A stretch of DNA of 52,100 nucleotides from Pseudomonadota bacterium (GTDB lineage Bacteria > Desulfobacterota > Desulfovibrionia > Desulfovibrionales > Desulfovibrionaceae). The stretch spans positions 1 through 52,100 of the forward strand of contig JAHIUD010000052.1 in NCBI GenBank assembly GCA_018817515.1. The letters are read 5' to 3'. Below are positions 1,638 through 43,648 of this stretch, piece after piece (the first letter of the stretch is position 1; the number at the start of each line of letters is the position of its first letter). The notes beneath the pieces are model-generated. The model was not told the DNA's origin. It did not search any database and saw nothing but the letters and a program-made list of their open reading frames with translations. The translations under genes and the position numbers were made by a program.

Positions 1638-1682
1638 GCCGAAAGGGCTGTTTCAGGAGGAACCTGAAACAGCCCTTTCGGC
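1638..1682 (+). terminator. H1 hairpin, copy A
   Basis: A 20-bp perfect stem with a 5-nt AGGAA loop, 23 nt after the DsrE-like stop. There is no U-tract directly after it, so it is not a textbook intrinsic terminator. The same 45-nt hairpin occurs at 37811-37855 and, on the other strand, at 41046-41090. This copy differs from those by one G-C to A-T change that preserves pairing on both arms. Confidence 0.8.
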
Positions 1683-1780
1683 GTAATGGGGATGCCAAAG
1701 GGCCTTAAGGCCCTTTGGCGGGGGTGCCGGGGGCGGTAGCCCCTGGGAGGGGCCAGGGGCAACGTCCCTGGCTCTTCTCC
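1638..1780 (+). repeat. Dispersed intergenic element, partial copy A
   Basis: Fills the gap between the convergent DsrE-like and RNase R genes. It holds hairpin H1, then a perfect 26-bp palindrome at 1694-1719 (GCCAAAGGGCCTT and its complement), then GC-rich GGGGCCAGGGGC-type repeats up to about 1780. The palindrome and H1 recur at the other intergenic copies. The middle modules seen at 19600, 37811 and 40834 are absent here. Confidence 0.75.
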
Positions 1781-1785
1781 TGGGC

Positions 1786-4260
1786 CTAGCGTCCGCCCCG
1801 TTTGCCGCCCGGCTTGCCGCCTGACTTTGGCCCGCCCGCTTTGGGGCCACCGGACTTTTTGCCGCCGACCTTCTGGCCGATGGCGTTGCGTCCGCCCGGG
1901 CTCTTGGGCCCGGAGCCTTTGCCCTGGCGTTTTTGCCGGGCCTGTTCGGTACGGCGGCGGTCATCCCTGGCCTGCTGTTCGCGGCGGGTGGGGCGGGCCG
2001 GGCGCGTCGCGCCGTCGCCGTCGCCTGCCTTGCGGTCCAGCACCATCTCCAGGTCGATCTCCAGGCGGTCCAGGTGCGCGCCGAGGAGCTTCACGCGCAC
2101 GGCCTGCCCGGCCTTGATGATGCGCCCGGTGCGGCTGCCCACGAGCATCTCGCGCTCCTTGAAGTAGCCGTAGTAGTCGTCGAGCATGGTCGAGAGGCGG
2201 ATGAAGCCCTCGGACAGAACCTCGGTGAGCTCCACCCAGAATCCGTAGTCCATGAGCCCGGTGACCACGCCCGCGAACTCGCGCCCTTCCTGGCCGCGCA
2301 GCACCATGCAGACGTAGCGCTTGTGGCATTCGCGCTCGGCCTCCTGGCTCACGCGTTCGCGCGCGGAGAGGTGCTGGCCCATCTCGGCCAGCTTCTTGAA
2401 GCCGGGCACGGGCATGGACGCATCGCCCAGGGCGCGCTTGAGCAACCGGTGCACGATGAGGTCGGAGTAGCGCCGGATGGGCGAGGTGAAGTGCGCGTAG
2501 GATTCGCTGGCCAGGCCGTAGTGGCCCTCGTTGTCCGGCTGGTACTTGGCCTGCTTCATGCTGCGCAGGACCAGGCGGTGCACCAGGAATTCGCGCTCGG
2601 TGCCCGCCACCGAGGCCAGCATGCGGCCCAGGGCCTGGGGCGTGAAGTCCTCGTCGCTGAAGCGTCCGGGCTTGGCCTTCTTGGGCGCGGCCTCGCCGGC
2701 CAGGCGTTCCAGCAGGGTGTACAGGGTCTCCAGCTTCTCGCGGTCGGGCGCGGCGTGCACGCGGTACAGGCAGGGCAGGGCGTGGGCCTGGAGGAACTCG
2801 CTCACGGCCTCGTTGGCGGCGATCATGAACTCCTCGATGAGCTGGTGGGCGAAGTGGCGCACCTTGGGGATGACGGAAGTGGGCTGGCCGTTCGTGTCGA
2901 ACTGGACCTCGCCTTCAGGCAGGTCGAAGTCCAGGCTGCCGCGCTCGATGCGGCGGCTACGCATCTTGCGGGCCAGTTCCTCGGCGATGTCGAGCATGGA
3001 CAGGACATCCTGCCCGGCCTTGGCGCCCAGGGTGGCCTTGACCTCGTCGAGCAGTGCGGTGCGGGCCTCGGGCAGCTTGTCCACGCAGATGTCGCGCGCG
3101 CGGGAATAGGTGAGCCGGGCGTGGCTGTTGATGACCGCGTTCATGACGCGCACCTCGCCGGGGGTGCCCCGGTCGGTGAAGTCCAGGCGCACGACCATGG
3201 ACAGCCTGGGCACGCCGGGGTTCAGGCTGCACAGGCCGTTTGAAAGCGCTTGGGGGAACATGGGCTCCACCGAGGACGGGAAGTAGTAGGAGTTTCCGCG
3301 CTCGTAGGCCTCGCGGTCCAGCGCCGAGCCCAGCGGCACGTAGTGGGCCACGTCGGCGATGGCCACCCAGAGCACGTAGCCCTTGCCCTTGCGTTCGCCC
3401 CCAGCTCGTTCAACATAGATGGCGTCGTCGAAGTCCCGCGCGGTCTTGCCGTCGATGGTCACAAAGGGCGTGGCGCGCAGGTCCTCGCGGTTGGCGAAGT
3501 CCGGCCCGGAGGGCACCTTGGGCAGGCTCGCGGCCTCCCTCAGGGCATCGTCGGGGAAGGTGGTGGGCACGCCGTGGTTGGCCTTGACCAGCGCCTCCTG
3601 GACCTGGGCCTCGGACTCCGGCCCCAGGCGCGAGAGGATGGTGCCGGCCCAGAGGGCGGCGTCCACCTGCTCGCCGGGGGCGCACAGCGCGATGTCGCCC
3701 TTTTGCAGGCCCAGGGCCGGGTCCACGCCCTCCACCAGGATGGCGAAGTCCAGGCGCGGGTCCGTGGGCTTGCAGAGCAGGCTGTCCTGCCCGGCGGAGC
3801 GCATGACGCGCACGGTGAGGACGCTTCTGCCGCGTTCCACGATGCGCACCACGCGGCCCTCGTGGTTGCGGGTGGCGTGCTCGCGGGTGATGGCCACGGC
3901 CACGCGGTCGCCGTTCCAGGCTCCGGCGGTGTCCTGGCCCAGGAACACGTCCTTGCGCCTGGGGTCGTCGGGGATGAGGAAGGCCACGCCGGAGCGCTGG
4001 ATCTGCACCTTGCCGGTGATGAGGTTGACCTTTTCGATGGGCGCGTAGGCCCGGCCAAGCTGGATGAGCTTGCCCTCGGCCACCAGGTCCTTGAGCATGT
4101 CCTCGACCTCGCCGACCTTGCGGCGGTGGAGGCCGAGTTCGGCTACGAGGTCGTCTGGCGCCAGGGGGCGCTTGGCCTCGCGCAGGAGCTTCAGGAGTGT
4201 CTTGTGGTCGGTGGGCAGGGGCGGCCTGCTCGGATTCTTGTTCTTTTTCTTCATGCTCAT
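1786..4260 (-). CDS. rnr: Ribonuclease R (RNB-family 3'-5' exoribonuclease)
   Basis: An 824-residue protein from the ATG at 4260 (MSMKKK), with two cold-shock/OB-type regions, a full RNB catalytic domain and a C-terminal S1 domain. The RNB signature IDGKTARDFDDAIYVE carries the metal-binding aspartates at about residues 269-279; FTSPIRRYSDLIVHR is the second hallmark, and the S1 domain begins near GREFAGVVTGLMDYGFW. The enzyme degrades structured RNA and helps rRNA quality control in the cytoplasm. The last 80 residues form a very basic tail ending in about 30 residues made almost only of Gly, Lys, Pro and Arg, likely an RNA-binding extension. The longer upstream ORF start (4356) is not preferred because the family begins near the Lys-rich segment. 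It lies 175 nt downstream of lpxK on the same strand. Confidence 0.95.
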   Translation of the reverse strand: MSMKKKNKNPSRPPLPTDHKTLLKLLREAKRPLAPDDLVAELGLHRRKVGEVEDMLKDLVAEGKLIQLGRAYAPIEKVNLITGKVQIQRSGVAFLIPDDPRRKDVFLGQDTAGAWNGDRVAVAITREHATRNHEGRVVRIVERGRSVLTVRVMRSAGQDSLLCKPTDPRLDFAILVEGVDPALGLQKGDIALCAPGEQVDAALWAGTILSRLGPESEAQVQEALVKANHGVPTTFPDDALREAASLPKVPSGPDFANREDLRATPFVTIDGKTARDFDDAIYVERAGGERKGKGYVLWVAIADVAHYVPLGSALDREAYERGNSYYFPSSVEPMFPQALSNGLCSLNPGVPRLSMVVRLDFTDRGTPGEVRVMNAVINSHARLTYSRARDICVDKLPEARTALLDEVKATLGAKAGQDVLSMLDIAEELARKMRSRRIERGSLDFDLPEGEVQFDTNGQPTSVIPKVRHFAHQLIEEFMIAANEAVSEFLQAHALPCLYRVHAAPDREKLETLYTLLERLAGEAAPKKAKPGRFSDEDFTPQALGRMLASVAGTEREFLVHRLVLRSMKQAKYQPDNEGHYGLASESYAHFTSPIRRYSDLIVHRLLKRALGDASMPVPGFKKLAEMGQHLSARERVSQEAERECHKRYVCMVLRGQEGREFAGVVTGLMDYGFWVELTEVLSEGFIRLSTMLDDYYGYFKEREMLVGSRTGRIIKAGQAVRVKLLGAHLDRLEIDLEMVLDRKAGDGDGATRPARPTRREQQARDDRRRTEQARQKRQGKGSGPKSPGGRNAIGQKVGGKKSGGPKAGGPKSGGKPGGKRGGR

Positions 4261-5621: not shown

Positions 5622-6335
5622 CTAGTCGCGGCTGGAGCCGAACAGGCGCAGCATCATCAGGAACAGGTTGAGGAAGTCCAGGTACAGGGTCAGCGCGCCC
5701 AGGATGGTGCCCCGGCGGATGGCGGTGCCGTCGTTCAGCGGCATGGCCTCGCCCATGTACTTGAGCTTCTGGGTGTCGTAGGCGGTGAGGCCTACGAAGA
5801 CGAACACGCCGATGATGGAGATGGCGTAGCTCATGGCCGAGCTCTTGACGAACATGTTGACCACGGACGCCAGCACGATGCCGATGAGGCCCATGAACAT
5901 GAAGCTGCCCAGGCTCGTCAGGTCGCGCTTGGTGACCATGCCGTAAACGCTCATGGCGCCGAACATGCCCGCCGTGACCACGAAGGCCTGGAAGATGCTG
6001 GCCATGCTGTACACGAAGAAGATGGACGAAAGCGTGACCCCGGTGAGCGCGCTGTAGACCAGGAACATCAGCGAGGCCGTGCTGGCCGAGAGTTTGTTGA
6101 TGGCGGCTGACAGGCCGATGACCAGGCCGAACTGCGCCAGCACCAGGACCATGACCAGGCCGGGGCTCTGCAGCAGGCTGACGCCGAACTGGCTGTTGGC
6201 CGTGAGCCAGGCGGCACAGGCGGTGATCAGCATGCCGGTGCTCATCCAGCCGTAGATGCCGCGCATGAAGGCGTTGATGGTCTCGGCTCTGGAGACGCTG
6301 GTCTGCGCGCCGGGGTAGGAAGGATATCCTGCCAT
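5622..6335 (-). CDS. BAX inhibitor-1 family membrane protein (YbhL/YccA-like)
   Basis: A 237-residue, seven-helix membrane protein. The ATG at 6335 (MAGYPSYPG) follows CAGGAGGAAC, a near-perfect Shine-Dalgarno, so the long upstream in-frame extension is not coding. Typical features are the NAFMRGIYGWMSTGML entry helix, the GLTAYDTQKLK loop and the C-terminal LYLDFLNLFLMMLRLFG. Bacterial relatives include the pH-sensitive calcium leak channel BsYetJ and YccA, which modulates FtsH. Role here is unproven. A good sigma-70-like promoter lies just upstream at 6403-6431. Confidence 0.92.
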   Translation of the reverse strand: MAGYPSYPGAQTSVSRAETINAFMRGIYGWMSTGMLITACAAWLTANSQFGVSLLQSPGLVMVLVLAQFGLVIGLSAAINKLSASTASLMFLVYSALTGVTLSSIFFVYSMASIFQAFVVTAGMFGAMSVYGMVTKRDLTSLGSFMFMGLIGIVLASVVNMFVKSSAMSYAISIIGVFVFVGLTAYDTQKLKYMGEAMPLNDGTAIRRGTILGALTLYLDFLNLFLMMLRLFGSSRD

Positions 6336-19599: not shown

Positions 19600-19905
19600 T
19601 GCCTCCGGCGGCCAGGGGCGCTGCCCCTGAACCCCGCCAAAGGACCTTAAGGCCCTTTTGGCTTTCTTTGGTAATCACGGGAGAACGTCTTTCCCTCGGC
19701 CTCTTTACCAACCCTCTCCAAAGGGCCAACCGTGTTCGGATTTTCGAGGGTCCCCCCTCGAAAATCCGAACACATTGCCAGGCCCAGCCCAGCCGACGCC
19801 TTTGCCCGCACCGCCCAGGCCCAGGCCAATGGGGGGGCCGGGGGCCTCAGGCCCCAGGCGGGGTCCAGGGGCAGCGCCCCTGGCTCAGCAGGCCCCAGGC
19901 CGGGG
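19600..19905 (+). repeat. Dispersed intergenic element, copy B
   Basis: Lies between the convergent FAD-subunit and MFS genes. In order: GCCTCCGGCGGCC; a CAGGGGC/GCCCCTG hairpin that can terminate the hydroxylase operon; the CCAAAGG palindrome; box 1 TCACGGGAGAACGTCTTTC (19675-19693); box 2 GGGCCAACCG; a perfect 18-bp stem with a TCCC loop (19733-19772); box 3 starting CATTGCCAGG (19773-19817); and further GC-rich hairpins. H1 is missing. The same order occurs at 37811-38117 and, inverted, at 40834-41090. Confidence 0.75.
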
Positions 19906-34238: not shown

Positions 34239-36390
34239 CCTCCTCGTCCTCGCGGCCGCCTTCCTCGCCTCCGCTGGACCGTGCCAGGCCTCCGCAAAGA
34301 GCGGCTTCGTGTTCTTCGAGGGCACGCAGTATCCGCTTGGCGTGGTCTTCATCCAGGGCGAGGCCCCGGGCCCCACGGTCATGATCCAGGGTGGCATCCA
34401 GGGCGACGAGCCCACGGGATTCCTCTCCGCTCAGATCCTGGCCGAGAGCCGCGTGCTCAAGGGCAACCTCATCGTGGTGCCCCGCGCCAACGTGCCTTCC
34501 ATCCACGCGCACCAGCGCGCCGTCAACGTGGACATGAACCGCCGCTTCGACCGCGACTACAACCAGTTCTATGAGGACCGGCTGGCCCGGGTGGTGCGCT
34601 TCCTTTTGTCGCAGTCAAGCGCCTTCATCCACCTGCACGAGGGCAGCGGCTTCTACGATCCCGTCTACGTGGACGCGCAGCGCAACCCCACGCGCTGGGG
34701 CCAGTCCATCATCATCGACGCCAACACCCACGAACGCCTGGACCTGGCCCGGCTGGTCAACTCGGCGCTGTCCGAGATCAACAGCAGCGTCAGGGAAAAG
34801 GACCTCCAGTTCAAGCTGTTCAACACCCGCACGTTTGAGCCTGACAGCCAGTATGCCAAGGAGATGCGCAAGTCGCTGACCTTCTACGCCCTGGCCAACT
34901 TGAACATCCCGGCCATGGCCGTGGAGGTCAGCAAGAACATCGGGGCGCTGGGCTGGAAGGTCAAGCACCAGGTCTTCGCCACCAGCGTGCTGCTGCGGCA
35001 CTGCGGGGTGGAGATAGTGCCCCCCCATGTGGACGCCGACGAGATCATGCGCCTGCACGAACGCGACCACCGTGTGAAGATCAACGGCAAGTCGCTGGAC
35101 GGCCAGGCTCTGGCCCTGCCCCCGGGCGGCACCCTCAAGGTGGACCCCGGCAGCGCGGGCAAGGAGGCCCACGGCCAGGTGGTGGCGGTGTTCGCCTCGG
35201 ACCGCCAGGGCGTGAACCTCGTGGACTCCCCGCGCATGGCCCTGGAGCGCTTCCAGGAGCTGGAGACGCGCGTGGACGGCCGCAAGGTCAGCACCACCTC
35301 CGTGCGCTTCGCCGGAGAGATGCCGCCGCCCCTGCCCAGCGGCCCGCCGGTGTTCATCTGCTGGCTCAACGGCAAGGCCGTGCAGGTGAAGCAGGGCGAG
35401 GTGCTGCACGCCGTGGTGGGCGACCAGTTGCTCATCGACGGGGTGCTCGGCAGCAAGTGGAAGGAGATCCTGAATTTCAAGGGCTACGCCGCGCGGCCCT
35501 GGTCCAACGACGGCCAGGACATGGGCTGGGAGATCATCCTCGACCCGGAGAGCTTCATCGACAAGTACCGCCTGCCCGGCAGCCGGAAGGACGTGGCGCG
35601 CTATCAGGTGGTGCGCGAGACCGTGGGCGCGCGCCCGGCAAGCTTTTTCGTGGACATCGAGCCGCGCCTGGTCCAGAGCCTCAAGCTTGTGGATGCCAAG
35701 GGGCAGAGCCTCAACGTGCACTGGACCTCCGGCGGCGAGATGCCTCTGGCGCCAGGCGAATACGCCATGGCCGACGCCTCCAGCAACGGCCCGGCCAACC
35801 GCCTCCTGCCCGTGCTGGGCAACCGCCCGCTCAAGACCGGCGAGAAGTTCCGCGTGGAGTCGGGCCGCACGCAGCTCTTGACTCTGCGCCAGTCCACGAC
35901 CTTTGCCGGGCTTGGAGCCATGACCATTGTGCCTGCGGCGGCGCATAAATCCGCCGAGAAGGTCGCAGCCAAAGTGGAAGCAAAGGTTGAGGCCAAGGCT
36001 GACGACAAGCCCGAGGGCAAGTCCGAGATGCGGGCTGAAGTCAAGCCCGTGGCCAAGCTCGCCGCCAAGCCCGTCGCCCAGGCCAGCACCAAGCCCGTCG
36101 CCCAGGCCACCGCCAAGCCCGTTGCCAAGGCCGCCGCCAAGCCCGTTGCCAAGGCCGCCGCCAAGGCCAGCACCAAGGCTGCGACCAAAATTGCAGACAA
36201 GCCCGTTGTCAAACCTGTTGGCAAGCCCGCTGCCAAGACCATCGTCAAGGCCGTGGCCAAGCCCGAGACCAAGCCCGGCGCCAAGCCCGAGGCCAAGGCC
36301 AGCGCCAAGCCCGTCGCCAAAGCTGACGCCAAGGCCCTGGCAACAGCCAAGCGCCTTACGGCCAACCCCGACCGCACCGAGCATTTCTAG
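34210..36390 (+). CDS. M14-family carboxypeptidase, Csd4/Pgp1-like, with long AKP-rich tail
   Basis: A 726-residue exported protein: signal peptide MARRTHWAISLLVLAAAFLASAGPCQASA, then an M14 metallopeptidase domain. The zinc motif is GGIQGDEPTG, i.e. Gln64-x-x-Glu67 instead of His-x-x-Glu; FIHLHEG supplies His143 (or His141), and AMAVEVSKN a candidate catalytic Glu239. A Gln-Glu-His site is the known oddity of Helicobacter Csd4, a DL-carboxypeptidase that cuts muramyl tripeptides to dipeptides and sets helical shape. NVDMNRRFDRDY is the usual M14 arginine region. After a middle beta-rich part, residues 577-726 are an alanine/lysine/proline repeat tail. Neighbours are the Csd6-like protein and a membrane coiled-coil protein. 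Confidence 0.82.
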   Translation: MARRTHWAISLLVLAAAFLASAGPCQASAKSGFVFFEGTQYPLGVVFIQGEAPGPTVMIQGGIQGDEPTGFLSAQILAESRVLKGNLIVVPRANVPSIHAHQRAVNVDMNRRFDRDYNQFYEDRLARVVRFLLSQSSAFIHLHEGSGFYDPVYVDAQRNPTRWGQSIIIDANTHERLDLARLVNSALSEINSSVREKDLQFKLFNTRTFEPDSQYAKEMRKSLTFYALANLNIPAMAVEVSKNIGALGWKVKHQVFATSVLLRHCGVEIVPPHVDADEIMRLHERDHRVKINGKSLDGQALALPPGGTLKVDPGSAGKEAHGQVVAVFASDRQGVNLVDSPRMALERFQELETRVDGRKVSTTSVRFAGEMPPPLPSGPPVFICWLNGKAVQVKQGEVLHAVVGDQLLIDGVLGSKWKEILNFKGYAARPWSNDGQDMGWEIILDPESFIDKYRLPGSRKDVARYQVVRETVGARPASFFVDIEPRLVQSLKLVDAKGQSLNVHWTSGGEMPLAPGEYAMADASSNGPANRLLPVLGNRPLKTGEKFRVESGRTQLLTLRQSTTFAGLGAMTIVPAAAHKSAEKVAAKVEAKVEAKADDKPEGKSEMRAEVKPVAKLAAKPVAQASTKPVAQATAKPVAKAAAKPVAKAAAKASTKAATKIADKPVVKPVGKPAAKTIVKAVAKPETKPGAKPEAKASAKPVAKADAKALATAKRLTANPDRTEHF
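35937..36345 (+). repeat. AKPVAKA-type coding repeat, tail of the Csd4-like gene
   Basis: Imperfect tandem units of about 7 codons (KPVAQAS, KPVAKAA and variants) with GCCAAGCCCGT-type repeats at DNA level. The encoded segment is strongly basic, like histone-H1-type tails, but on an exported protein. Confidence 0.85.
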
Positions 36391-36504: not shown

Positions 36505-37743
36505 ATGACAACCCGCGCGCGCACCCCACGTTTTCCCCTGGCCTTGGCAGCCCTGCTGGCGCTGTTGGCTCTGCTCCCCGCCTGCGCCGAAAAGACCGTG
36601 GCCCCGCTGCCCGGACCCGTGGTGCTCGCGCCTGCCGTGCTGCCCCCGCCTGCGCCCGCCGCACCGCAGAACTGGCTGCGGCCAAGCCTGTTATATGCCA
36701 CCAGCCGCAACGTCATCGACCCCGGCACACGCACCCGCAGCGCCCGCTACGGGGGCCTGCGCTCGCGCGAGACCTCCTATGGCGAGATCAAAATGAGCCT
36801 GGCCGGCACCGGAGCTGGCGCCGCAGACCGCATGGACGTCCAGGTGGGTCTGGAGAGCACCAGCCGCGTCACCCGCACGGGCTTCTTGACCGAGCTTGAG
36901 CGCGCCGCCGCGCGCACGCCTGGACGCGAGGTGCTGCTCTTTGTCCACGGCTTCGACAACAGCTTCGAGGACGCGGCCAAGACCGCAACGCGCATCACCC
37001 ACGGCGTGGGCTTCCAGGGTGCGGCGCTGCTGTACAGCTGGCCCTCCGCCGGGAGCGCCGCCAGCTACCTGCAAGATCGCAATAACGCCTACTGGGCCGT
37101 CCATTATCTGAAGCAGCTCTTGTCCGATGTCCTGGCCGACCAGTGGATCGGCCGCGTGAGCGTGGTTGTCCACAGCATGGGCAACGAGGTCTTCATCCGC
37201 GCCTACAGCGATCTGGCCGACGAATGCGCGCGCGCGGGCAATGGCGACCTGAGGAAGATCCGCAACATCGTGCTGGCCGCGCCCGACGTTGACCGCGAGA
37301 TCTTCCTGGACCAGCACGCGCTGAAGCTCATGAGCCAGGGCGCGCGCATCATCCTGTACGCCTCGCGCTCGGACATGGCCCTGTCCGCCTCGTCCTTGGT
37401 CCAGGGCGGCGACTACGAGCGCCTGGGCAAGAATGTCGTCTGCATCCCCGGCCTGGCCGTCACCGACGTCTCCGACGTGCGCACCGACCTGCTTGGGCAT
37501 TCCTGGATCGGCGACAGCCGCTCCGTCCTGACCGATCTGCGTTGTGTGCTCTCCGAGGGCTGCAACCGCTACGCGGGCAAGCTCCTGCAGGAGTATGTCT
37601 GCCCGACAAGCTCCCGCTATTTCCTGCCCGCGCCGGACAGCTCCGACCGCGCCACCAACGGCAAGTCCTTCTGGCGGCTGCAGGTCAACGACGCCGCGTC
37701 CGGGCCCAGCCTGGGCGGCTACAAGCTGAATTTGCCCTGGTAG
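36505..37743 (+). CDS. Alpha/beta-hydrolase lipoprotein (DUF900-like)
   Basis: A 412-residue protein. The ATG at 36505 is preferred to the GTG at 36481 because it gives a compact lipoprotein signal (LALLALLPAC, lipid on Cys27). After a proline-rich linker, a DUF900-type alpha/beta-hydrolase domain begins at LLYATSRN; the oxyanion strand is VLLFVHGFDNSFEDA (His148) and the nucleophile is Ser224 in VVVHSMGNEV, with Asp in IVLAAPDVDREIF as a likely triad member. It should be an envelope esterase or lipase of unknown substrate. It follows the Csd4-like gene by 114 nt and may be co-transcribed. Confidence 0.85.
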   Translation: MTTRARTPRFPLALAALLALLALLPACAEKTVAPLPGPVVLAPAVLPPPAPAAPQNWLRPSLLYATSRNVIDPGTRTRSARYGGLRSRETSYGEIKMSLAGTGAGAADRMDVQVGLESTSRVTRTGFLTELERAAARTPGREVLLFVHGFDNSFEDAAKTATRITHGVGFQGAALLYSWPSAGSAASYLQDRNNAYWAVHYLKQLLSDVLADQWIGRVSVVVHSMGNEVFIRAYSDLADECARAGNGDLRKIRNIVLAAPDVDREIFLDQHALKLMSQGARIILYASRSDMALSASSLVQGGDYERLGKNVVCIPGLAVTDVSDVRTDLLGHSWIGDSRSVLTDLRCVLSEGCNRYAGKLLQEYVCPTSSRYFLPAPDSSDRATNGKSFWRLQVNDAASGPSLGGYKLNLPW

Positions 37744-37804
37744 GCCACAAGCCAAGGGCCTCCGCCCCTTGATCCCGCCGGGGGCAGCGGCCCCCGGACC
37801 CCCA

Positions 37805-38117
37805 TAGTACGCCGAAGGGGCTGTTTCAGGAGGAACCTGAAACAGCCCCTTCGGCTTTATTGGGTCAGGGAAGTCACGGGAGAGCGTCTTTCTCTTTGTC
37901 TCTCGTCTCCGCTTTAAAAGGGGCCAACCGCGCGCGGGGCTTTTTTGCCCGAAGCACTGCCAATCATCCAGCCACAACCCCCTGAAACCCCGCAGGAGGC
38001 GCGCGCATTGCCAGGGCCAAGCCGAGCCAAGGCCTTTGCCCGCGCCGCCCATGGCCCAGCCCATATGGGGATTCCAAAGGGCCTCAGGCCCTTTGGCCGC
38101 CGGAGGCATCTCTCGGC
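37805..38117 (+). repeat. Dispersed intergenic element, copy C
   Basis: The fullest plus-strand copy, in the gap between the convergent hydrolase and dehydrogenase genes. Order: H1 (37811-37855); box 1 TCACGGGAGAGCGTCTTTC (37874-37892); box 2 GGGGCCAACCG (37920-37930); a short GGGC-T6-GCCC hairpin; about 50 nt of unique sequence; box 3 from CATTGCCAGGGCCAAGCC (38006-38050); the CCAAAGGGCCT palindrome (38074-38096); and GCCGCCGGAGGCATC. Long reverse-strand open frames across it are repeat artefacts. Confidence 0.8.
37811..37855 (+). terminator. H1 hairpin, copy C
   Basis: A 20-bp perfect stem with an AGGAA loop, 67 nt after the hydrolase stop, with TTTATT following. It is identical over all 45 nt to the minus-strand copy at 41046-41090. 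Confidence 0.85.
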
Positions 38118-38140
38118 TCCGACCGCCGGAGGCTATTGGC

Positions 38141-39034
38141 TCAGGCGGACAGCTTCTGGAGGGCCAGGAACAGCGCCTGGGTGCCGTCGCGGCCATGCCC
38201 GTCCTTGGCGGCCTGGCTGTAGAGCCCGTGCATCAGCTCAAGTCCCGGCAGCTTGAGGCCCATGCGCCGCGATTCCTCCAGGGCGATGCCCATGTCCTTG
38301 ATGAAGTGGTCGATCATGAAGCCCGGCGCGAAGTCGCCCTTGAGGATGCGCGGGGCCAGGTTCTCCAGGCTCCAGCAGCCTGCCGCGCCCTTGGAGATGG
38401 ACCCGAGCAAAACCTGGGGGTTTAAGCCCGCGCGCGTGGCGTAGAGCAGGCTCTCGCACACGCCGATCATGCTCCCGGCGATGACGATCTGGTTGCACAT
38501 CTTGGTGTGCTGCCCAGCCCCGGCCGCGCCCTGGTGCAGGATGATCCTGCCCATGCGCTCGAACAGCGGCCGCACCTGCGCGAAGACCGCCGCCTCGCCG
38601 CCGACCATGATGGACAGGGCCGCGTTTTTCGCGCCCACGTCCCCGCCGGACACTGGCGCGTCCAGGGTGTGCTGGCCGTTATTGCGCGCAGCCGCGAAGA
38701 TCTCCACGGCCAGGCTGGGGCTGGTGGTGGTCATGTCCACGGCGATGGCGCCGGGCTTGAGGCCTGCCAGCACGCCGTCCGCGTCCAGATAGACGCGGCG
38801 CACGTCGTCCGGGAAGCCCACGATGCTGAAGACGATGTCCGAGGCCTGGGCCACCTGCTTGGGGCTGTCGGCCCAGGCCGCGCCGCGGTCCAGCAGGGGC
38901 TGGGCCTTGGCGCGGGTGCGGTTGTGGACCGTGGCCGGGTGCCCGGCGGCCATGAGGTGACCGCACATGGACAAACCCATGACTCCGGTGCCGATCCAGC
39001 CGATGCGTAACGCCTTATCTTGGGTGGGGTTCAT
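38141..39034 (-). CDS. Beta-hydroxyacid dehydrogenase (3-hydroxyisobutyrate / tartronate semialdehyde reductase family)
   Basis: A 297-residue NAD(P)-dependent enzyme. The Rossmann motif IGWIGTGVMG is at 11-20, followed by VHNRTRAKAQPLLDRGA; the substrate loop is DAPVSGGDVGAKNAALSIMVGG, and the catalytic lysine sits in AGQHTKMCNQIVIA. Family members oxidise 3-hydroxyisobutyrate or reduce succinic/glyoxylic/tartronic semialdehydes. An Arg/Asn mix after the second strand suggests NADP(H). It is 8 nt after the aminotransferase stop, so the two likely run sequential steps on an amino-acid-derived semialdehyde; substrate not known. Confidence 0.88.
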   Translation of the reverse strand: MNPTQDKALRIGWIGTGVMGLSMCGHLMAAGHPATVHNRTRAKAQPLLDRGAAWADSPKQVAQASDIVFSIVGFPDDVRRVYLDADGVLAGLKPGAIAVDMTTTSPSLAVEIFAAARNNGQHTLDAPVSGGDVGAKNAALSIMVGGEAAVFAQVRPLFERMGRIILHQGAAGAGQHTKMCNQIVIAGSMIGVCESLLYATRAGLNPQVLLGSISKGAAGCWSLENLAPRILKGDFAPGFMIDHFIKDMGIALEESRRMGLKLPGLELMHGLYSQAAKDGHGRDGTQALFLALQKLSA

Positions 39035-39042
39035 TGCTTCTC

Positions 39043-40236
39043 CTAGGCCTTGGCCTTGGCCAGGGCGCGTTTGAAGCCGTCTGCGGCGCGGCGGATGACG
39101 TTTTCGCCCACGCAGAAGGCCAGGCGGAAGTGCCCCGGGCAGCCGAAGCCCTTGCCGGGCACGGCCAGAATGCGTTCTTCCAGCAGCAGCTGCACAAAGG
39201 CCACGTCGTCGCCGCCGGGCGCCTCGGGGAAGAAGTAGAACGCGCCGCGCGGCATGGGGTACTTGTAGCCTGCGGCATCGAGCACGTCGCGCATGGCGTC
39301 GCGCCGGGCGGCGTAGATCTGCGCGTCCACCTGGGAGCCCAGGGTCTTGGCCAGGAGCTTCTGGGCCAGGGCGGGCGCATTGACGAAGCCCAGGATGCGG
39401 TTGGCCAGGATGATGCCGCCCAAAAGCTCGGCCTTGTCCTGCATGGCCGGGTTCACCAGGGCGTAGCCCACGCGCGCCCCGGCCAGCGAGAGGTTCTTGG
39501 AGAACGAGCTGACAACCACGGTGTGCGGGTACAGCGGCAAGAGCGAGGGCACCTCAGCGCCGTCAAAGGCCAGGAAGCGGTAGGGCTCGTCAGCCAAAAG
39601 GAAGATGGGGCGCTTGCGCCCGGCGCTCTTGCGCTTGAGCATTTCGCAGAGCTCCACCAGGGTCGCGCGCGGGTACACCACGCCGGTGGGGTTGTTGGGC
39701 GAGTTGATGAGCAGCACGGCGGTCTTGTCGGTGATGGCGGCCTCCAGCGCGGCCACGTCCAGGTCAAAGGTGCCGGGTTTGGCCGGGGCGGTCTTCAGCA
39801 CGGCGCCGTGGTTCTCCACGTAGAAGCCGTACTCCACGAAGTAGGGAGCGGGGCAAAGCACCTCGTCGCCGGGTTCGAGCACGGCGCGGTAGAAGGCGTT
39901 GATGGCCCCGGCCGCGCCGCAGGTGATGACCAGGTCGGTGGCGGCCACGTCAACGCCCTGCTCCACGCCCACGACCTTTGCCAACGCCTCACGCACGTGG
40001 GGGTAGCCGAAGTTCGGCATGTAGCCGAAGGCGAACGGCGCGTCGGCCTCGTCGGCGATCTCGTGCAGGCCCTGGCACACGCAGGAGGGCGGCGGCAGGT
40101 CGGGGTTGCCCAGGCTGAAGTCGCAGACCTGGTCCTCGCCAAACTGTTTCTTGAGCTCGATGCCGGCCTCGAACATGCGCCGTATCCAGGACGAGCGCTC
40201 CATGTAGCTGGAAACCTGGGCGGAAAGTAGGGTCAT
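39043..40236 (-). CDS. Class I PLP aminotransferase
   Basis: A 397-residue aspartate-aminotransferase-like protein. The ATG at 40236 follows GAAGGAGCC. Motifs: VCDFSLGNPDLPPP, NFGYPHVREALAKVVG, the cofactor loop ITCGAAGAINAFYRAVLEPGDEV, NSPNNPTGVVYPRATL, ADEPYRFLAFDG and the Schiff-base lysine in VVSSFSKNLSLAGARVGY. GCPGHFRLAFC carries the carboxylate-binding arginine. Amino donor not readable from sequence. It forms a pair with the downstream beta-hydroxyacid dehydrogenase. Confidence 0.9.
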   Translation of the reverse strand: MTLLSAQVSSYMERSSWIRRMFEAGIELKKQFGEDQVCDFSLGNPDLPPPSCVCQGLHEIADEADAPFAFGYMPNFGYPHVREALAKVVGVEQGVDVAATDLVITCGAAGAINAFYRAVLEPGDEVLCPAPYFVEYGFYVENHGAVLKTAPAKPGTFDLDVAALEAAITDKTAVLLINSPNNPTGVVYPRATLVELCEMLKRKSAGRKRPIFLLADEPYRFLAFDGAEVPSLLPLYPHTVVVSSFSKNLSLAGARVGYALVNPAMQDKAELLGGIILANRILGFVNAPALAQKLLAKTLGSQVDAQIYAARRDAMRDVLDAAGYKYPMPRGAFYFFPEAPGGDDVAFVQLLLEERILAVPGKGFGCPGHFRLAFCVGENVIRRAADGFKRALAKAKA

Positions 40237-40385
40237 AAGTGGCTCCTTCAAGCGTGGCCCATGGGCCGTGGTGTGGGCGCAAGACTAGCCAAAGCCGGGT
40301 GGAAAGCCAAGGAGGGGGCGCCCGCTCGCGCAGTCCCCCCATCGGTCTTTTCCGTTGCTGACGGCGCGGTCGCTTGCTGCGGGTA

Positions 40386-40739
40386 TTATTCGACGCGCTC
40401 CGCAGGCCAGACGAGCATGAACACTTCCTTCTGGCCACAGTTGTTCTTGAGGTAGCCCTTTATCTCCTTGGCGACGTTTTTGGGCGCGGCGACGGTATAG
40501 CTCAGGTTCTCCGGGCTGTAGTCCCTGCCCAGGCTGCCCATGGTTCCCCCCATGCTGCGCGAGGCCGTAAAGCCCCCGGCTGTCTTGATGAGGAAATCGT
40601 TGAGGCTGGAGAGCTGCTCGGCGGGGATGGACTGCGGCACCACGAAGAAGTGCACCGTGGCCTTGCGCGCCAAAGCGGCGGACGCAAGCAGCAGAACCAG
40701 CCCAAGGCTCAAGGTCAACAAAAGACAGACGCGTTTCAT
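40386..40739 (-). CDS. Small exported protein, unknown function
   Basis: A 117-residue protein with a signal peptide (MKRVCLLLTLSLGLVLLLASAALA) and AAGGAGCGCTCC before the ATG. The mature part is about 93 residues: KATVHFFVVPQSIPAEQLSSLNDFLIKTAGGFTASRS, a glycine-rich middle, and GYLKNNCGQKEVFMLVWPAERVE. It has a single mature cysteine and an alpha/beta look. No family recognised. It has its own candidate promoter. Confidence 0.75.
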   Translation of the reverse strand: MKRVCLLLTLSLGLVLLLASAALARKATVHFFVVPQSIPAEQLSSLNDFLIKTAGGFTASRSMGGTMGSLGRDYSPENLSYTVAAPKNVAKEIKGYLKNNCGQKEVFMLVWPAERVE

Positions 40740-40769
40740 GGAGCGCTCCTTGGTGAGAATGTTTTGGCG

Positions 40770-40798
40770 ACACTAGCCGGGCCGGGCTGCGTTGCCAA
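40770..40798 (-). promoter_or_regulatory. Candidate promoter of the small exported protein
   Basis: On the minus strand TTGGCA and TAGTGT are 17 nt apart, about 30 nt before the ATG. It sits right at the border of repeat copy D. Confidence 0.45.
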
Positions 40799-40833
40799 GG
40801 ACAAAGCCTGGAGCCTGGAGCAGGGGGCAGGGG

Positions 40834-41090
40834 GATGCCTCCGGCGGCCAAAGGGCCTGAGGCCCTCTGGACTCCCCGTTGGCCTGGGCCAGGGGCGGCG
40901 CGGGCAGAGGCCTTGGCTTGGCTTGGCCCTGGCAATGCGCGCGGTTTTTTCGAGGGGGAACCCCTCGAAAAGCCCCGCGCTCGGTTGGCCCCTTTTTGAG
41001 AGTGTTGGGAAAGGCAAAGACGCTCTCCCGTGGCATCCCACACAAGCCGAAGGGGCTGTTTCAGGTTCCTCCTGAAACAGCCCCTTCGGC
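40834..41090 (-). repeat. Dispersed intergenic element, copy D (inverted)
   Basis: Read on the minus strand, from the glgP end: H1 (41046-41090), box 1 (41016-41033, CACGGGAGAGCGTCTTTG), box 2 (40982-40992), a TTTTCGAGGGG hairpin (about 40937-40980), box 3 (40893-40937), the CCAAAGGGCCT palindrome with one mismatch (40848-40870), and GCCGCCGGAGGCATC. Box 3 differs from copy C at only 2 of 45 positions. Between glgP and the next minus-strand gene. Confidence 0.8.
41046..41090 (-). terminator. H1 hairpin, copy D
   Basis: Reverse-orientation copy of H1, 63 nt after the glgP stop. On the glgP sense strand the loop again reads AGGAA within CAGGAGGAACC. Confidence 0.85.
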
Positions 41091-41100
41091 GTAATGGGGG

Positions 41101-41133
41101 CGGCTGGGGGGCTTCAAGCCCCCCAGCCGCCGG
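41101..41133 (-). terminator. GC-rich hairpin right after glgP
   Basis: CGGCTGGGGGGCTT and AAGCCCCCCAGCCG form a strong stem (about 41101-41130) between the glgP stop and H1. No U-tract. Confidence 0.55.
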
Positions 41134-41152
41134 AGGCCAAGTCTTGCAAGCG

Positions 41153-43648
<2,496 letters not shown>

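What the first reader, a model, noticed from the sequence alone, without database searches (positions are those of the whole stretch)
37811..37855. Repeated 45-nt 3'-end hairpin (H1) with compensatory change and an AGGAGGA loop
Three copies follow stop codons within 23-67 nt (1638-1682, 37811-37855, and inverted at 41046-41090). Each is a perfect 20-bp stem with a 5-nt loop. The last two are identical; the first differs at two positions that turn a G-C pair into an A-T pair on opposite arms, so pairing is conserved while sequence changes. On the sense strand of the upstream gene every copy reads CAGGAGGAACC across the loop, which is a Shine-Dalgarno sequence. None has a U-tract. This could be an unusual 3'-UTR element: an RNA stabiliser, a ribosome-binding decoy, a Rho or RNase landing site, or a mobile palindromic unit.
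Basis: partly seen in the sequence, partly recalled or inferred. Interest (0 to 1): 0.75.

Follow-up and report, generated by a model that had tools for sequence, protein, structure and literature searches.

The report
Repeated gene-end terminator hairpin family
A near-identical stem-loop is stamped behind dozens of genes in one genus of sulfate-reducing bacteria, where it most likely serves as a ready-made stop signal for transcription; the open question is how it spread and why its sequence stays so uniform.

Summary
The 45-nt hairpin is real and at the stated coordinates. It is no three-copy curiosity. The genome (genus taken to be Humidesulfovibrio) holds 41 close matches and 58 model-matched places including divergent stems; 6 of 14 congeners carry 5-43 close copies and 8 none. 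Of 109 copies examined none lies inside a gene. 94 of 105 follow a same-strand gene end, mostly by 40-100 nt. Pairing is kept in 99.3% of cells, with 34 doubly compensated cells against 15 unpaired.

A T-rich tail follows the stem on the gene side in 102 of 109 copies, against 9 of 109 on the other side. At sister loci other paired stems occupy the same slot before a similar tail. The SD-like loop is not essential: it varies, is inverted in about 8 copies, and is absent from several alternative stems.

Best reading: a dispersed intrinsic-terminator element, often one half of a modular cassette between convergent genes. A second, strongly covarying hairpin (H2) lies on the facing gene's side. 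It works like the pneumococcal SPRITE repeats. No RAYT transposase, target duplication or experiment is in hand. How near-identical copies spread or stay uniform is unsolved. New variant of a known kind.

The parts
37811..37855 (+). H1 hairpin copy 2, 20-bp stem, AGGAA loop; follows the + gene ending at 37743 (DUF900 hydrolase)
37856..37866 (+). T-rich tail of copy 2 (TTTATTGGGTC)
   Evidence: tail statistics
37778..37797 (+). A-type GC-rich hairpin between the stop codon and H1
37924..38012 (-). degenerate H2 region of copy 2 (CCAACCGCGCGCGGGGC ... CGCGCGCATTGCC with an insert in between); no intact H2 by the search rule used
38074..38096 (-). A' hairpin in inverted orientation, facing the convergent gene that ends at 38141
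41046..41090 (-). H1 hairpin copy 3, downstream of glycogen phosphorylase (41153-43648 -)
41037..41045 (-). T/G-rich tail of copy 3 (TTGTGTGGG on the minus strand)
41099..41131 (-). A-type hairpin of copy 3 between stop codon and H1
   Evidence: I8
40931..40990 (-). H2 hairpin of the copy-3 cassette
40847..40869 (-). A' hairpin at the far end of the copy-3 cassette
   Evidence: D11
1638..1682 (-). H1 hairpin copy 1, between convergent genes ending at 1614 (+) and 1786 (-); flanking modules face the minus-strand gene, the loop is inverted relative to them
1695..1718 (-). A-type hairpin belonging to copy 1, on the side of the minus-strand gene
   Evidence: D11
19636..19671 (+). sister locus: a different hairpin in the H1 slot, followed by the TTTCTTTGG tail
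19724..19779 (+). H2 hairpin of the sister locus (without H1)

Best explanation
H1 is a dispersed intrinsic (Rho-independent) terminator element. Shown by sequence: after the stop codon come a GC-rich hairpin (A), a C-rich linker (CCCCATTRC), the 20-bp H1 stem, and a short T-rich tail (TTTCTTTGGGG type) on the gene-sense side. In convergent gene pairs the same intergenic space usually also holds a second hairpin, H2, on the side of the facing gene. Inferred: when polymerase has transcribed the H1 stem and reaches the T-rich tract, the very stable hairpin (about -39 to -41 kcal/mol) releases the transcript and leaves a protected 3' end. H2 is inferred, less firmly, to do the same for the opposite gene. 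Copies arose by spread within the genus, by a means not identified. Pairing is kept by selection.
For: Position: 0 of 109 copies inside genes; by flank orientation 94 of 105 follow a same-strand gene, one of them (L034) at 3.4 kb. Tail asymmetry: 102 of 109 against 9 of 109. Covariation: 34 doubly changed cells, 0 of 500 shuffles as high. Slot exchange: in H2-bearing loci without a canonical H1, and in model-matched places, other paired stems (a GCGAAAGG..CCTTTCGC family, an A-like stem, GCTCTGTTTC variants, GGGCTGGGCC and GGGCCGGGGC stems) sit in the same slot, most of them before a T-rich tail. Module retention follows gene orientation: H2 in 51 of 70 H1 loci that face a convergent gene, against 8 of 28 that do not (Fisher p 8e-5; 6 of 28 and 4e-6 after two hits judged false by eye). 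A close relative has an ordinary hairpin-plus-TTTTT terminator between the orthologous gene pair where this genome has H1 (L111 vs L053). Desulfovibrio desulfuricans G20 is listed among genomes that use intrinsic termination widely (PMC1852404, passages seen).
Against: The T-tract is short and imperfect: mean 4.1 T in the first 8 nt. A plain terminator needs pairing, not one sequence, yet H1 is far more uniform than A, H2 or the linkers. At 19 non-independent orthologous pairs H1 is 95% identical against 79% at 4-fold sites (partly ascertainment, since copies were picked by core sequence). 11 of 105 copies do not follow a same-strand gene by my gene caller. No transcript ends were measured. 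The simple terminator scan flagged copy 2, but found 6 sites in its region where shuffles gave 6.0, so it carries no weight. H2's own tail passes the cut-off in only 31 of 70, so its role as a terminator is weaker.
Confidence: 0.8

Rival explanations
1. H1 is mainly an mRNA 3' stabiliser or processing end (block to 3' exonucleases), with termination by Rho or by other sites further downstream.
For: A very stable 20-bp stem just after stop codons; imperfect U-tract; REP-type hairpins are known to do this (recalled).
Against: The strand-asymmetric T tail and its presence behind exchanged stems are not needed for a stabiliser.
Confidence: 0.12
2. H1 is part of a selfish or domesticated mobile repeat (MITE- or REP-like) that merely tolerates gene 3' ends; the terminator function is secondary. 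(Not exclusive of the best explanation.)
For: Genus-limited, patchy copy numbers 0-43; H1 and H2 coupled in one cassette, 291-409 bp in the 10 loci measured, bounded by inverted A modules; the same convergent gene pair carries the cassette in opposite orientations in two species (L005 vs L083).
Against: Y1 transposase (RAYT) family in 0 of 15 genus genomes (other transposase families were not searched); flanking direct repeats of at most 1 nt in 12 readings of 10 cassettes; no match of one cassette in plasmid or phage collections and one viral contig; no clean empty site found.
Confidence: 0.35
3. The AGGAGGA loop acts as a ribosome-binding decoy or anti-SD sponge.
For: Sequence resemblance; relative to the flanking modules the loop has one orientation in 101 of 109 copies.
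Against: Loop variants AAGAA, AAAGA, ATGAA break the motif; about 8 inverted loops; three bases of AGGAGG are paired in the stem; several slot-mates lack it.
Confidence: 0.03
4. H1 arms are DNA uptake signals that happen to pair, as in Neisseria and Haemophilus.
For: Paired uptake signals form terminators in those genera (PMC1852404, passages).
Against: In the whole own genome 72 of 74 exact 12-nt arms lie in an H1 hairpin; the other two lie within 3 nt of contig ends. Uptake signals number about 1000 or more per genome.
Confidence: 0.02

Closest known systems
[quoted passage not shown] PMC3049150, section 5 and passages read)
   Same: Short dispersed repeat limited to a few related species; long stem (18 bp there, 20 bp here) followed by a U-rich tract; tens of copies; close to gene 3' ends and enriched between convergent genes; no transposase or target duplication identified; thought to be co-opted as terminators.
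   Different: GC-rich not AT-rich, shorter imperfect T tract, no AAAA/TTTT ends; here embedded in a modular cassette with exchangeable stems and an opposing hairpin H2; strong covariation. The two sequences were not aligned.
Paired uptake-signal terminators of Neisseria and Pasteurellaceae (PMC1852404, passages seen)
   Same: One stereotyped sequence repeated as terminator hairpins, enriched in tail-to-tail regions; in Neisseria long stems with fewer T in the tail.
   Different: Arms do not occur singly here; tens of copies; no link to DNA uptake.
BOX elements (PMC3049150, section 5 and passages read)
   Same: Modular intergenic repeat of several structured parts, variable in size.
   Different: No tandem middle module seen here; each half tied to a gene 3' end.
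REP/BIME with RAYT (PMC3733652, passages seen)
   Same: Intergenic palindromes, mostly downstream of genes, between convergent or unidirectional ones.
   Different: No GTAG/CGTC tag in the consensus, no RAYT gene in the genus genomes, T tail present.

Membership tests
Intrinsic (Rho-independent) terminator | stable GC-rich hairpin | tested here: met
   20 perfect pairs, -38.9 and -41.3 kcal/mol for window copies; 99.3% of cells paired
Intrinsic (Rho-independent) terminator | T-rich tract right after the stem on the transcribed-sense side | tested here: met
   tail score <= -2.5 in 102/109 sense vs 9/109 antisense, random 8.2%; 97 vs 14 if oriented by the loop alone; the tract is imperfect
Intrinsic (Rho-independent) terminator | downstream of a same-strand stop codon | tested here: met
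   94 of 105 with a known upstream gene; 0 of 109 inside genes
Intrinsic (Rho-independent) terminator | releases RNA polymerase at that site | not testable with these tools
   no transcript data for the genus in reach
SPRITE-type dispersed terminator-like repeat | sequence homology to SPRITE | not tested
   no SPRITE sequence was aligned; the paper describes SPRITE as AT-rich (28% GC) with AAAA/TTTT ends, which H1 is not, so it is said to work like SPRITE, not to be one
SPRITE-type dispersed terminator-like repeat | enrichment between convergent genes | tested here: met
   70 of 98 vs 14 of 46 gene ends in the window, Fisher p 4.5e-6; p 5e-7 with the window's own H1 spacers removed. Background is one window only
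REP element mobilised by RAYT | RAYT (Y1 transposase) gene in the genome | tested here: not met
   PF01797 in 0 of 15 genus genomes; controls rang in 5 of 14; some of these genomes are incomplete
REP element mobilised by RAYT | GTAG or CGTC tag at one end | tested here: not met
   consensus flanks are CCCCATTGC and TTTnGTGGG
MITE | target-site duplication | tested here: not met
   0-1 nt in 12 readings of 10 cassettes; true element borders uncertain
MITE | terminal inverted repeats | tested here: inconclusive
   the cassettes measured start GCCTCCGGCGG and end with its complement, but this motif also occurs in genomes of the family without H1
DNA uptake signal | many unpaired copies across the genome | tested here: not met
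   72 of 74 exact arms in the own genome lie in H1 hairpins, the other two at contig ends
Known Rfam family | match above gathering score | tested here: not met
   only a tRNA in the window; sub-threshold matches only in 37700-41200

The most novel reading that the evidence does not exclude
The tail-to-tail regions of this genus are built from a copied, asymmetric double-terminator cassette (A-H1-tail ... H2-A'). It is multiplied and kept uniform by DNA-level exchange between copies rather than by a transposase. Whole stems are swapped in concert while the tail stays, the 45-nt palindrome can flip in place (about 8 copies), the cassette can invert between its A ends, and each half survives where a gene end needs it. 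That would make terminators units of concerted evolution.
Probability: 0.25. Interest if true: 0.65.

Novelty: new variant of a known kind. Interest (0 to 1): 0.42.

Why it matters
It shows that bacterial terminators can be dispersed, near-clonal repeats with exchangeable stems, outside the uptake-signal genera. It gives a natural series (same slot and tail type, different stems; flipped loops; both orientations of one cassette) in which to test what a terminator needs and how such elements spread without an evident transposase. It also supplies ready markers of gene ends in a poorly studied sulfate-reducer genus.

Tried and rejected
Rejected after test: RAYT-driven REP, uptake signal (an earlier count of 189 of 190 arms used loci chosen for having H1 and is biased), plasmid or phage cargo (one cassette as query; the single viral contig carries H1 with its A module and the same flank as host locus L041), Rfam family, ribosome decoy (loop variation), target duplications.

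Led nowhere or needed repair: my first genome pattern had one base too many and found nothing. The first H2 regex had an off-by-one in its hairpin check and was redone. One search printed nothing because of a module-name clash. In one search part of the ortholog listing was read on the wrong strand, so it was used only as a first look; the systematic comparison is. No clean empty/filled site was found: among the orthologous neighbouring-gene pairs compared, 11 had H1 on both sides and 2 on one side alone (L111/L053 and glgP in G001), and both of these differ throughout the spacer.

Rows dropped: of 41 own places, one (C89) has the same flanks as C9 at contig ends and was merged, leaving 40. 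Five matches with no H1-type outer stem (L016, L018, L049, L073, one in L058) were dropped before counting 109 copies. Four more (L034, L037, L052, L059), whose 3' arm is shifted or truncated, were left out of the 105-row alignment only; with them 26 of 2180 cells are mismatched. Two H2 hits in non-convergent loci (L027, L054) were judged false by eye; the raw figure is 8 of 28. Two matches judged not H2 (L149, L153, from H1-less genomes) were left out of the H2 alignment although they passed the energy filter. Of 17 further model places in the own genome 16 were examined; one partial match at a contig edge was not.

Gene positions rest on my own codon-usage caller trained on this genome, not on an annotation. 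The genus name and the link of unnamed handles to named records (e.g. G002 = PHAR, G003 = MGTN, G008 = JAVHLD) are inferred from matching contig lengths.

Full report
WHAT WAS CHECKED. The core, up to 3 mismatches allowed, occurs three times in the window and never in 100 dinucleotide shuffles. One statement is wrong: a T-rich stretch does follow the stem. It is short and interrupted by G or C (e.g. TTTATTGGG, TTGTGTGGG, TTTCTTTGGGG), which is why it is easy to miss.

HOW MANY AND WHERE. In the window's own genome (3.6 Mb, 114 contigs) the arm pattern with up to 3 mismatches gives 41 places, 40 of them distinct. A covariance model of 105 copies finds 58 distinct places there (114 strand hits, one partial at a contig edge; only 150 of 1749 first-look candidates were scored). 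The pattern with up to 2 mismatches is in 7 of 15 genus genomes: own 39, G002 43, G003 26, G012 19, G008 13, G013 8, G011 5. Eight congeners have none, three of them 99-100% complete (G001, G004, G009) and the others 81-86%. Outside the genus three single matches with 2 mismatches turned up among 25 genomes. The model is less strict: at E <= 0.001 it also gives 2-7 strand hits in five H1-less congeners (best 5.6e-11, G014), i.e. other long hairpins of similar build. Of 59 family genomes scored with stricter filters at 1e-8, the own genome, G002 and weakly G055 (4.7e-9) matched. A scan of 84,980 species genomes gave 67 stretches: records titled Deltaproteobacteria, Desulfovibrionales, Proteobacteria or Humidesulfovibrio MAGs, plus one 'Bacillota' MAG contig with two full copies (L045), and two chance hits without the H1 outer stem (L049, L073).

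POSITION. With a codon-usage gene caller, 0 of 40 own copies and 0 of 109 copies in all lie inside genes. For own copies with a called upstream gene, 35 of 38 follow a same-strand gene; 26 of 40 lie between convergent genes and 9 between co-directional ones. For all 109, read by the flanking modules, 94 of 105 follow a same-strand gene; read by the loop alone it is 91 of 105. Of 87 distances from gene end to stem listed (copies not flagged as inverted), 76 are 40-100 nt; one is 3.4 kb.

STRUCTURE AND TAIL. On 103 distinct rows 99.3% of 2060 cells are paired. 34 cells are changed on both sides against a shuffled mean of 2.5, with none of 500 shuffles as high, and 15 cells are unpaired. Compensated changes sit at six pairs, above all the seventh from the base (A-T 84, C-G 11, G-C 7, G-U 1). 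The tail score (weights 0.9/0.6, formula recalled; cut-off -2.5 as quoted in PMC12306157, passages seen) is passed by 102 of 109 copies on the gene side, 9 of 109 on the other side, and 8.2% of random 15-mers. For the 8 copies flagged as inverted the side was set by the flank motif, a mild circularity; without them it is 96 and 8 of 101, and by loop alone 97 and 14 of 109. The stem plus asymmetric tail at the 3' end of genes is the anatomy of an intrinsic terminator.

THE LARGER UNIT. H1 is one module of a longer arrangement: stop, often GCCTCCGGCGG, a variable GC-rich hairpin (A), CCCCATTRC, H1, T-tail, a conserved linker (GGAAGTCACGGGAGAGTGTCTTTC...AAAAGGGGCCAACC type), a second hairpin H2, ATTGCCAGGGCC..., and an inverted A' before the convergent gene. 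H2 varies strongly in sequence but keeps pairing: 14 of 21 pairs show changes on both sides among 70 copies. With an exact pattern, H2 hairpins turned up in G000 (31), G002 (14), G003 (7), G008 (6) and G012 (6), all of which have H1; single matches in G004, G007, G010 and G013 were judged not to be H2 by eye, and G011 (which has H1) gave none. In 58 convergent pairs with H1, 43 have H2 facing it and none has a second H1 within about 500 nt by the core pattern. H2 is present in 51 of 70 H1 loci facing a convergent gene, but in 8 of 28 others (p 8e-5; 6 of 28 and 4e-6 after removing two hits judged false). Conversely, nine of the 31 own H2 places have no canonical H1. Five of them have a same-strand gene ending within 300 nt upstream: the slot holds an intact stem in four, and only a remnant arm in the fifth (L180). 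Of the other four, one (L179) holds an intact stem. Each half thus tends to persist where a gene end can use it; the last numbers are small.

EXCHANGEABLE STEMS. The slot between the C-rich linker and the T-tail also holds GCTCTGTTTC variants, a GCGAAAGG..CCTTTCGC family, an A-like stem (window 19636-19662) and several GGGCTGG/GGGCCGG stems, perfectly or nearly perfectly paired, most followed by a T-rich tail. Of the 16 further model places examined, 12 follow a same-strand gene, 3 do not and 1 has no called upstream gene. Pairing and, mostly, the tail are what they share. This is the strongest sequence argument that H1 acts as a stem before a T-tract, and against a needed role of the AGGAGGA loop.

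HISTORY. Fourteen own sites share an orthologous upstream gene with H1 sites of G002, G003 or G012 (one, L102, on a 31-residue fragment), so part of the set is inherited. One convergent gene pair carries the cassette in opposite orientations in two species (L005 vs L083; L093 agrees with L005). Another pair has H1 in this genome but an ordinary hairpin-TTTTT terminator in G002 (L111 vs L053). At 19 non-independent orthologous pairs H1 is 95% identical against 79% at 4-fold sites; spacers range from 39 to 94%. Copies were picked by sequence, so this contrast is biased upwards. About eight copies have the 45-mer inverted within otherwise normal flanks (L068 is symmetric and ambiguous), which hints at DNA-level processing of the palindrome. 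No RAYT gene, no target duplication in 12 readings of 10 cassettes, and no plasmid or phage match were found. Single arms are not scattered about: 72 of 74 exact arms in the own genome lie in H1 hairpins, and the other two abut contig ends.

RELATION TO KNOWN THINGS. The nearest known kind is SPRITE of Streptococcus pneumoniae: a dispersed, species-limited, terminator-like repeat with an 18-bp stem and U-rich tract, over-represented between convergent genes, with no transposase or duplication identified (PMC3049150; section 5 and passages read). Paired uptake signals in Neisseria and Pasteurellaceae are another case of stereotyped terminators (PMC1852404, passages). REP elements differ by tag and transposase (PMC3733652, passages). 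A word search in two surveys of stem-loop repeats (PMC1590033, PMC2267715) found no mention of Desulfovibrio in their main text. Searches for Desulfovibrio with intrinsic terminators, transcription terminators plus start sites, Term-seq or REP, for Humidesulfovibrio, and for repeat or bidirectional terminators showed no title or abstract start that describes this family (listings only, open-licence PMC papers only).

VERDICT. Ordinary in likely function, unusual in form: a genus-specific, repeated terminator with exchangeable stems, often half of a two-sided cassette. Unexplained: how it spreads, and why H1 stays so uniform when pairing alone should suffice.

Noticed in passing
window 19724-19779, 40931-40990; 70 copies in alignment A2: H2, a second dispersed hairpin with strong covariation (14 of 21 pairs with double changes), on the side of the facing gene of convergent pairs; no Rfam match in the window.
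   Followed up: partly
genus and family genomes: GCCTCCGGCGGC, the start of the A module behind stop codons, is abundant in several genera of the family (e.g. 68+67 in G019, 68+85 in G023 against 1-6 control hits), also where H1 is absent: an older, wider motif.
   Followed up: no
L045 (record JAHIVB010000016.1): A contig filed under a 'Bacillota' MAG carries two complete H1 copies with A modules, so it is probably Humidesulfovibrio DNA in a mislabelled or mixed bin.
   Followed up: no
L239 (IMG/VR contig), 6160-6186: One viral-collection contig carries H1 with an A module and the same flank as host locus L041: host DNA next to a provirus, or a virus that carries the element.
   Followed up: partly
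own genome contigs C31 (both ends), C9 start and C89 end: Assembly contigs end in or next to H1 copies (C9 and C89 share the same copy), so the repeat seems to break assemblies and true copy numbers may be higher.
   Followed up: no
window 35944-36384: About 27 imperfect 12-nt tandem steps inside the ORF 34309-36390; similar repeats are seen beside the orthologous locus in G008 and G012.
   Followed up: no
window 1786-4260: The gene faced by the inverted-loop copy 1 encodes an RNase R/II-type exoribonuclease (RNB domain).
   Followed up: no
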